A stretch of 64,000 nucleotides of DNA, taken from NCBI RefSeq assembly GCF_003711225.1, contig NZ_CP031030.1:5084001-5148000 (forward strand), given 5' to 3'. Position numbers and translations under genes: made by a program. Below, piece after piece: positions 9,269 to 35,305 of this stretch. The notes under the pieces were generated by a model. The model was not told where the DNA came from. It made no database searches and worked only from the letters and a program-made list of their open reading frames with translations. The DNA comes from Runella sp. SP2 (GTDB taxonomy: Bacteria; Bacteroidota; Bacteroidia; Cytophagales; Spirosomataceae). The number at the start of each line of letters is the position of its first letter. Position 1 is the first letter of the stretch.

Positions 9269-10804
9269 ATGAAAAAAATCCAATCGGCCTTACTTTCGGT
9301 TTATTACAAAGACGGTCTTGAACCAATCGTAAGACTCCTCCACCAACACGGCGTAAAGCTGTACTCAACGGGTGGAACACAGACGTTCATCGAAAACATG
9401 GGAATTCCTGTGACTGCGGTGGAAGACCTTACAGGCTACCCTTCTATTTTCGGAGGCCGCGTAAAAACGCTTCACCCTGCTGTTTTTGGAGGTATTTTGT
9501 ACCGTCGTGACGACGCTGGCGACTTGGCCCAAGCGGCTCAGTTCAACATTCCATCAATTGACTTGGTGGTTGTCGATTTGTATCCTTTTGAGGAAACTGT
9601 TGCGTCGGGGGCAAGTGCCGAAGACATCATCGAAAAAATCGACATTGGAGGTATTTCATTGATTCGGGCAGGGGCTAAAAACTTCCAAGATTCACTCATC
9701 GTTTCATCGCGGAATCAATACGCTGACGTACTCAACATTCTTACTGAAAAAGGCGGTGCTACCGACCTCGCCGACCGTCGTCGTTATGCACAAGAAGCAT
9801 TTGCCACTACCAGCCATTACGACACTGCGATTAATCAGTGGTTTATAGCCCCCCAGCCCCCAATGGGGGTGAAAGAAGGCTCCCCCATTGGGGGCTGGGG
9901 GGCTGGGGCTACCCTTCGCTATGGCGAAAACCCGCACCAAGCCGCGACATTTTACGGGGATTTGGATGCGATGTTCGACAAACTTCACGGAAAAGAGTTG
10001 TCGTACAACAACTTAGTCGATGTTGACGCTTGCGTTTCTCTCATCGACGAGTTTGGCGATGAACCAACTTTTGCAATTATCAAACATACCAATGCTTGCG
10101 GCGTAGCAACGGCTGCCACTGCTCATCAGGCTTACGTAAATGCCTTGGCCTGCGACCCAGTTTCGGCTTTCGGAGGGGTAATTATTACCAATACAACCGT
10201 GGACTTGGCCACAGCTGAAGAACTTAACAAGCTCTTCATGGAGATTTTGATTGCTCCTGCCTACGAAGCAGACGCGTTGGCGTTGTTGCAATCAAAGAAA
10301 AACCGCATTCTTCTCCAGCGTAAAAACATTGAGTTACCTACCAAAATGTTCAAAACCATCCTCAACGGGGTGCTCGAACAAGACAAAGATTTGGTAGTAG
10401 AAACGGCTTCTCAGTTTACAACCGTGACGAAAGTAGCTCCTACGGATGCGGAAGTAAAAGCATTAGAATTTGCGTTGAAAGTGTGTAAACATACCAAATC
10501 AAACACGATTGTATTGGCCAACGAAAACCAACTTCTTGCGAGTGGGACGGGTCAAACTTCGCGCGTGGATGCTCTTCGTCAGGCGATTGAAAAAGCAAAA
10601 TCGTTTGGCTTTGAATTGAAAGGTTCAGTAATGGCTTCGGATGCGTTCTTCCCGTTTGCTGACTGCGTCGAAATCGCGCACAATGCAGGTGTTACCGCAG
10701 TGGTACAACCAGGTGGCTCTATCCGCGACAAAGATTCGATTGAATACTGCGACGCCAACGGCATGGCGATGGTGACAACGGGCGTTCGTCACTTTAAGCA
10801 CTAA
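9269..10804 (+). CDS. purH: Bifunctional AICAR formyltransferase / IMP cyclohydrolase
   Basis: PurH carries out the last two steps of purine synthesis: formylation of AICAR with 10-formyl-THF, then ring closure to IMP. The 511-residue protein has the MGS-like cyclohydrolase domain (GRVKTLHPAVFGGIL, VVDLYPFEETV, IDIGGISLIRAGAKN). The transformylase domain begins at LRYGENPHQ and includes KHTNACGVA and the C-terminal QPGGSIRDKDSIEYCDANG block. All expected motifs are intact. Odd feature: between the end of the cyclohydrolase domain (YDTAINQWF) and LRYGENPHQ there is an extra in-frame segment, IAPQPPMGVKEGSPIGGWGA, encoded by a perfect palindrome (9847-9904). It falls at the interdomain linker, where an extra loop should be tolerated. 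Confidence 0.97.
   Translation: MKKIQSALLSVYYKDGLEPIVRLLHQHGVKLYSTGGTQTFIENMGIPVTAVEDLTGYPSIFGGRVKTLHPAVFGGILYRRDDAGDLAQAAQFNIPSIDLVVVDLYPFEETVASGASAEDIIEKIDIGGISLIRAGAKNFQDSLIVSSRNQYADVLNILTEKGGATDLADRRRYAQEAFATTSHYDTAINQWFIAPQPPMGVKEGSPIGGWGAGATLRYGENPHQAATFYGDLDAMFDKLHGKELSYNNLVDVDACVSLIDEFGDEPTFAIIKHTNACGVATAATAHQAYVNALACDPVSAFGGVIITNTTVDLATAEELNKLFMEILIAPAYEADALALLQSKKNRILLQRKNIELPTKMFKTILNGVLEQDKDLVVETASQFTTVTKVAPTDAEVKALEFALKVCKHTKSNTIVLANENQLLASGTGQTSRVDALRQAIEKAKSFGFELKGSVMASDAFFPFADCVEIAHNAGVTAVVQPGGSIRDKDSIEYCDANGMAMVTTGVRHFKH
9847..9904. repeat. Perfect 58-bp palindromic element translated within purH
   Basis: Two 23-base arms, complementary at every position, flank a 12-base loop (TGAAAGAAGGCT). 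The left arm begins AGCCCCCCAG and ends CAATGGGGG; each arm itself contains a short CCCCCAATGGGGG palindrome. It is far more G+C-rich than the surrounding coding sequence and encodes proline/glycine-rich residues in the purH frame. It looks like a small mobile palindrome (REP/RPE-like) that landed in frame at the domain boundary. Confidence 0.92.
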
Positions 10805-10808
10805 AGTG

Positions 10809-10864
10809 AGAGGGTTGCTCACAACCCTCTACTACAAATACGGTCGGGTTGTAAGCAACCCTCT
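10809..10864. repeat. Dispersed hairpin, GGGTTG family, two tandem copies
   Basis: Copy one (10809-10830) has perfect arms AGAGGGTTG and CAACCCTCT around the loop CTCA. Copy two (10843-10864) pairs GGGTTG with CAACCC around TAAG. Both lie within 60 bases of the purH stop, ahead of the main terminator. Confidence 0.85.
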
Positions 10865-35189: not shown

Positions 35190-35305
35190 CGTCTGGTTGC
35201 TCACAACCAGACGTTCGGGTTTTGTCACCTTCCCGAAAGTTCAAAACTTTCGGGAAGGTCTAAACTTTCGGGAAGGTAACAAAGATCGGGTTGTGAGCAA
35301 CCCTC
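35190..35305. repeat. Stacked dispersed hairpins (both families)
   Basis: Three hairpins within 116 bases between convergent genes. First, 35190-35213: perfect arms CGTCTGGTTG and CAACCAGACG with loop CTCA. Second, 35227-35259: perfect 15-base arms ACCTTCCCGAAAGTT and complement, then a second half copy to 35278. Third, 35286-35305: GGGTTG and CAACCC with loop TGAG. Together they may also terminate transcription from both sides. Confidence 0.85.

What the first reader, a model, noticed from the sequence alone, without database searches (positions are those of the whole stretch)
9847..9904. Palindromic element translated in frame inside purH
Sequence shows 23-base arms that match perfectly around a 12-base loop, and the palindrome is read as about 20 Pro/Gly-rich residues between the cyclohydrolase and formyltransferase halves of PurH. 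The rest of PurH is intact, and the extra length sits just before LRYGENPHQ. This resembles Rickettsia palindromic elements and other REP-like units that land in genes, but the G/C-run arms and the host group look different. Perfect arms suggest recent arrival or active correction.
Basis: partly seen in the sequence, partly recalled or inferred. Interest (0 to 1): 0.78.

Follow-up and report, generated by a model that had tools for sequence, protein, structure and literature searches.

The report
Palindrome translated inside a housekeeping enzyme
A perfect DNA palindrome that belongs to a family scattered through this bacterium's genome is read as part of the purine enzyme PurH, and the same family sits in other conserved genes, where related species show the palindrome gained, flipped or rebuilt while the protein frame is kept.

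Summary
In detail: 23-nt arms, 100% complementary, 12-nt loop, read as about 20 residues of PurH. It is one copy of a dispersed family, AGCCCCC-NNN-CCCCCNNNGGGGG and its mirror image: 145 arm matches in the genome, 0 in the reversed control. Of 77 sampled groups 41 lie inside long frames. Against three congeners, length differences are multiples of three in 74 of 76 comparisons at in-frame sites and 10 of 36 elsewhere, so these copies sit in translated, selected genes (MetH, LeuRS, GcvP, KdpA). In PurH the palindrome replaced the variable native linker (+3 residues). A second genus has analogous palindromes at the same PurH and LeuRS residues. Loops are inverted between species at three sites; perfect arms of different sequence occupy the same site in different species; arms match best when loops are short. 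These are signatures of replication template switching, though a genome-wide arm-covariation test was weak. RAYT transposases are not linked (0 clear cases in 20 chosen loci). It works like Rickettsia palindromic elements; homology to them was not tested.

The parts
9269..10804 (+). purH ORF, 511 aa (IMP cyclohydrolase / AICAR formyltransferase)
   Evidence: ORF; Pfam and PDB-sequence matches
9847..9869 (+). left arm AGCCCCCCAGCCCCCAATGGGGG
   Evidence: family member
9870..9881 (+). 12-nt loop
9882..9904 (+). right arm CCCCCATTGGGGGCTGGGGGGCT, exact reverse complement of the left arm
9845..9913 (+). linker codons I193-T215 that stand where congeners have a native linker before LRYGENPHQ

Best explanation
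The segment is one copy of a dispersed, lineage-specific palindromic element that tolerates being translated. A copy entered the purH linker before this species split from its congener G004 and took the place of native linker codons. Only in-frame, stop-free copies in tolerant loops survive selection. The two arms are kept complementary, and loops are flipped, because the replication fork switches template inside the hairpin and copies one arm onto the other. Shown here: family membership, an open and conserved frame, replacement of native codons, occupation of the same residues in another genus, loop inversion at three sites, matched change of both arms at three sites. Inferred: template switching as the cause, near-neutral (selfish) status in PurH, surface-loop position, translation itself (no protein data). 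Unknown: how new copies spread. Two copies that share a loop suggest that arm+loop+arm can be copied as a unit, and I found no linked transposase.
For: Family: 145 arm matches, control 0; 20 strict pairs. Frame: length differences divisible by 3 in 74 of 76 comparisons at 29 in-frame sites, 10 of 36 at 13 others; first arm in one codon phase in 15 of 18 pairs. Replacement: native linkers in congeners. Same residues in another genus: purH, leuS, an ABC transporter. Loop inversion: 331936 in G001 and G004, 4707536 in G004, 2876571 in G008 (at most 1 of 5000 shuffles each; sites picked after reading the alignments). Matched arm change: G004 has 41-nt perfect arms at 2879970 and 29-nt at 4707536 where own has other arms; G008 has other 20-nt perfect arms at 2696161. 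Perfect 23/23 arms in 5 of 13 short-loop and 0 of 17 longer-loop pairs, Fisher p 0.009; Spearman -0.44, p 0.015. Unit copying: loops AATAACTGTC and AATAACTGTT at two loci with the same arms. Precedent for arm homogenization plus spacer inversion in coding DNA: PMC8604942 (abstract and passages).
Against: Shuffling right arms among 30 own pairs shows no significant covariation of the central triplet (77 of 90 against 75.5 expected; 706 of 2000 shuffles as high), none over the outer 10 nt (286 of 2000) and only a marginal one for the 3-nt outer spacer (44 of 90 against 35.9; 83 of 2000). Only 5 of 30 pairs have perfect arms, and many copies are single arms. Most conserved loops keep their orientation. 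Different perfect arms at one site could be re-insertion of another family member. One site outside long frames (7083705) looks like a nearly clean insertion, +95 nt against all three congeners for an element of about 108 nt. No expression or mobility data.
Confidence: 0.68

Rival explanations
1. A classical REP/MITE: a non-autonomous element moved in trans by a RAYT or another transposase, with in-gene copies as collateral.
For: Dispersed palindromes with conserved ends (AG before the C-run in 92 of 126 arms); in all 39 multi-arm groups the first arm is of the - and the last of the + kind. Intragenic REPs are known, also different REPs at about the same site of recB in two Xanthomonas species (PMC3733652 section 15). 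Site 7083705 looks like a nearly clean insertion.
Against: In 20 chosen RAYT-like loci (about 1 kb on each side, some cut by contig ends) the only match was one with 3 mismatches that I take for chance. The one Y1-type match of this genome (26.7 bits, cut-off 23) is followed by GGTTGTGAGCAACC, another family with 213 matches. 41 of 77 groups are in long frames. Transposases other than Y1 were not searched for.
Confidence: 0.2
2. A functional RNA or translation element: the hairpin slows the ribosome inside PurH or regulates purH.
For: Very stable hairpin; position before the formyltransferase signature LRYGENPHQ; same position filled in a second genus.
Against: Absent from 27 of the 29 relatives' linkers seen. 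In 20 other proteins the element starts inside a Pfam match in 12, between or outside matches in 6, unclear in 2 (my reading), so no domain-border rule.
Confidence: 0.07
3. Translational bypassing: the ribosome skips the palindrome, as in the yeast mitochondrial elements mentioned in PMC6649704 (passage).
For: Hairpins inside conserved genes.
Against: Length differences at in-frame sites are multiples of three in 74 of 76 comparisons, frames are open and codon phase is biased, as expected for translation.
Confidence: 0.03

Closest known systems
Rickettsia palindromic elements (RPE)
   Same: Dispersed palindromes read in frame inside genes of ordinary proteins (PMC3733652 and PMC6649704, passages).
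   Different: Other host group; about 59 nt in purH with C/G-run arms (RPE lengths recalled as longer); arms here change together at some sites, whereas RPE are reported to lose repeat identity with time (PMC6649704); native codons are replaced here. Sequence homology not tested.
GTAG and CGTC REP superfamilies with RAYT (PMC3733652)
   Same: Short dispersed palindromes, sometimes intragenic, once at about the same site in related species. CGTC REPs are reported from Bacteroidetes.
   Different: GTAG next to 7 of 126 arms and CGTC/GACG next to 0 of 126; about half in long frames; no RAYT link in 20 loci.
Quasipalindrome template-switch mutation (yeast coding genes, PMC8604942; RNA hairpins, PMC8794818, listing only)
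   Same: Arm homogenization and spacer inversion in coding DNA.
   Different: There no dispersed family is described in the passages I saw, and inverted spacers changed 2-5 bp; here a dispersed family flips loops of 10 to 14 nt.
Coding palindromes in Nematomorpha mitochondria (PMC6649704)
   Same: Perfect inverted repeats inside protein genes, gained and lost between species (abstract start and passages).
   Different: Mitochondrial, up to 284 bp; one shared sequence family is not described in the passages I saw.

Membership tests
Rickettsia palindromic element (RPE) | palindrome inserted in frame in ORFs of likely functional proteins | tested here: met
Rickettsia palindromic element (RPE) | sequence homologous to an RPE family | not tested
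   no RPE sequence was fetched; Rfam gave no match above a gathering score
Rickettsia palindromic element (RPE) | host in Rickettsia | tested here: not met
   the only named record with the same purH arrangement is a Cytophagia MAG; host genus itself is not named by any search
GTAG/CGTC REP | GTAG or CGTC tetranucleotide at one end | tested here: not met
   GTAG within 6 nt of the C-run in 7 of 126 arms, CGTC/GACG in 0 of 126
GTAG/CGTC REP | mostly intergenic | tested here: not met
   41 of 77 groups inside frames of at least 500 nt with 90 nt on both sides
GTAG/CGTC REP | neighbouring RAYT gene (REPtron) | tested here: not met
   20 chosen RAYT-like loci: one 3-mismatch match, taken for chance
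MITE | terminal inverted repeats of a parent insertion sequence and target-site duplication | tested here: inconclusive
   inverted ends present; no formal test of duplications; no parent IS sought
Template-switch palindrome correction | spacer inversion with arms kept | tested here: met
   three of the four sites examined
Template-switch palindrome correction | arms change together | tested here: inconclusive
   seen at 2879970, 4707536 and 2696161; shuffle test within the genome weak

The most novel reading that the evidence does not exclude
A transposase-free selfish sequence: a palindrome family that spreads and renews itself only through replication template switching, and that recurrently rewrites the same loops of conserved enzymes in separate genera, so that protein loops evolve by hairpin copying.
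Probability: 0.3. Interest if true: 0.88.

Novelty: new variant of a known kind. Interest (0 to 1): 0.72.

Why it matters
It offers a group of close congeners for two open questions: how palindromic repeats keep their arms matched, and how selfish DNA becomes protein sequence. Loop flips, matched arm changes and different palindromes at one codon position in sister species make the steps testable. The same genome also holds a contrasting palindrome family beside its only RAYT-like gene.

Tried and rejected
Rfam: only matches below gathering score, mostly microRNA precursors. RAYT link: not supported. Arm covariation within the genome: not significant for the central triplet or the outer 10 nt, marginal for the outer spacer. 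The first automatic loop-orientation script mis-parsed several loops and flagged only 2876571 as inverted; one search repeated it with hand-set borders on 4 sites picked after reading the alignments: 3 have an inverted loop in at least one congener, and at 2879970 G008 is in the same orientation and G004 undecided. The in-ORF list used (70 of 71 against 14 of 41) was typed by hand after lengths had been printed, so one search repeated the count with the rule: 74 of 76 against 10 of 36; its two exceptions are 2461317 in G004, where the compared stretch reaches beyond the start of the frame, and 2879970 in G008, whose row ends one base short. Domain-border rule: not supported. The phylum survey (34 of 392 genomes, own included) also caught unrelated palindromes and tandem repeats, so it does not measure this family's range. 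Paper searches listed no description of this family; CGTC REPs in Bacteroidetes are in print (PMC3733652); only openly licensed papers are held, and the RPE paper tried was not. Structure prediction never ran, so the loop position is inference.

Full report
What is there. The palindrome at 9847-9904 is exact: two 23-nt arms, 100% complementary, around 12 nt. It lies in frame in a 511-residue PurH and covers residues 193 to 212, shortly before LRYGENPHQ. The stretch folds far better than its shuffles, and the window holds no other copy.

A family. In the 7.6-Mb genome the 19-nt arm core has 76 matches at up to 2 mismatches (40 + 36) and none in the reversed control. A looser arm pattern has 145 matches (70 + 75), control 0 (its list stops at 100). 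Strict pairs number 20. From the listed places I took 52 stretches of the genome and found 83 groups there and in the window. The unit is AGCCCCC-NNN-CCCCCNNNGGGGG, a loop of 10 nt to about 90 nt (pairing limit of my script 110), and the mirror image. In all 39 multi-arm groups the order is - arm first, + arm last; the other 44 groups show one arm only. Of 83 groups 44 lie inside stop-free frames of at least 500 nt with 90 nt on both sides; leaving out 6 groups in repeated stretches (L124-L127), 41 of 77. Among 59 genomes of the neighbourhood, own included, 19 match the pair pattern, some with unrelated palindromes.

Frame kept. I compared 47 chosen sites plus purH with congeners G004, G001 and G008; 42 of the 48 had at least one alignable congener. 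With the frame rule, the length difference is a multiple of three in 74 of 76 comparisons at 29 in-frame sites and in 10 of 36 at 13 other sites; both exceptions have a simple cause (see Tried and rejected). The first arm is read in the phase S-P-x-x-P-N-G-G in 15 of 18 pairs, which points to selection on the peptide or to a phase preference of arrival. PurH uses a rarer phase, in which the common TAA spacer would be a stop; its arms carry CAG and CTG there. Genes hit include MetH, LeuRS, a cytidylyltransferase, an inositol-monophosphatase-family protein, KdpA, a B12/MeaB/mutase fusion, GcvP, a UPF0004/radical-SAM/TRAM protein, a GH106 enzyme and an AcrB-family protein (names from Pfam matches and my reading of them).

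Replacement and recurrence. In PurH the three closest congeners are each 9 nt shorter although the element is about 59 nt. Two of them (G001, G008) have another linker without a palindrome, and G004 keeps only the right half. In LeuRS the KGEYDY of three congeners is replaced by SPPAPNGGVNSEAPIGGWGL. By my reading there are 22 in-frame comparisons at 13 paired sites in which the congener has no palindrome; the net change runs from -45 to +57 nt and never reaches the length of the element. Against this, site 7083705, outside long frames, gains 95 nt against all three congeners and looks nearly like a clean insertion. G018, of another genus, has its own palindrome at the same PurH position and further ones at the same LeuRS and ABC-transporter positions. 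Its copies mostly have GAT in the centre where own mostly has AAT. The identical native LeuRS codons of the three congeners make independent gain there more likely than loss (inference). A strict scan of the GTDB collection for this arrangement in purH found one record (L094), whose linker is the same as that of G018; the window's genome and very near ones may be left out of that scan. In 8 chosen G018 stretches and its purH locus, 12 of 13 pairs are in frames of at least 450 nt with 75 nt on both sides.

Flips and matched arms. With loop borders set by hand on four sites picked from the alignments, the loop at 331936 has one orientation in own and G008 and the reverse complement in G001 and G004; at 4707536 own and G004, and at 2876571 own and G008, are reverse complements. 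Each reached at most 1 of 5000 shuffles. Other conserved loops mostly keep their orientation. Arms also change together: at 2879970 and 4707536 G004 has longer perfect arms with the same extra module on both sides, and at 2696161 G008 has other 20-nt perfect arms. At the 27 hand-listed in-ORF sites the congeners hold an inverted repeat scoring 12 or more in 11 of 71 rows, against 4 of 600 random 80-nt windows; most of these rows are the same palindrome family, and row lengths vary, so this is a rough control. At 288724 and 4665075 congeners carry palindromes of another type; CCTCCC..GGGAGG hairpins number 7 to 15 in five of eight genomes, with 1 to 2 control matches in those five. Within the genome, arms are perfect in 5 of 13 pairs with loops of 16 nt or less and 0 of 17 with longer loops (Fisher p 0.009), and arm identity falls with loop length (Spearman -0.44, p 0.015). 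The shuffle test of arm covariation was weak.

Mechanism. Template switching in a replication hairpin is reported to equalise arms and invert spacers, also in coding DNA (PMC8604942, abstract and passages; PMC8794818, listing). It would explain perfect arms, flips, paired changes and the loop-length effect without any element-specific enzyme. How new copies arise is open. Two loci 42 kb apart share arms and nearly the same loop, which suggests that whole units are copied. I found no linked RAYT: 20 chosen RAYT-like loci gave one 3-mismatch match, and the genome's only Y1-type match is followed by GGTTGTGAGCAACC repeats, another family of 213 matches. Other transposases were not searched for.

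Comparison. It works like the Rickettsia palindromic elements but homology was not tested. It fails the GTAG/CGTC REP tests of ends, intergenic place and RAYT link as far as tested. I therefore call it a new variant of protein-coding palindromic elements. The paper searches listed no description of this family, within a library of openly licensed papers; CGTC REPs in Bacteroidetes are in print (PMC3733652). My guess that the host is Runella is recalled and comes from no call.

Noticed in passing
10809-10864, 35195-35302, 39961, 59324, 59407: A second palindromic repeat, GGTTGTGAGCAACC, has 117 + 96 matches in the genome, control 0, 6 of them exact in the window, and two copies follow the genome's only RAYT-like gene (G000:C1:3780849, L255): it looks like a classical REP-RAYT pair.
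   Followed up: partly
G001 loci at sites 288724, 4665075, 3105065 (L184, L194, L211); G004 loci L155, L165: Congeners carry palindromes of another type (CCTCCC..GGGAGG or CCCTCTCC-like) at sites where own has the C/G-run palindrome. The CCTCCC..GGGAGG pattern counts 7 to 15 in five of eight genomes searched, 1 in one and 0 in two; control 0 to 2.
   Followed up: partly
G004 at sites 2879970, 4707536, 4072573; own 4708561, 2466157: A module close to CGCGCGGCGTACCGT sits inside arms, on both arms at two G004 loci and on single arms elsewhere.
   Followed up: partly
L152 (G018): One leuS frame of G018 holds three palindromes, all in frame.
   Followed up: no
G001 at purH and at sites 2879970, 2696161, 5457968: Where G001 lacks the palindrome, the loop holds low-complexity sequence (for instance AACTGCAAACAGCAAACTG, GGGGCAAAGGACAAGGAGCAGAGGGC) that looks like other repeat filler; not counted genome-wide.
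   Followed up: no
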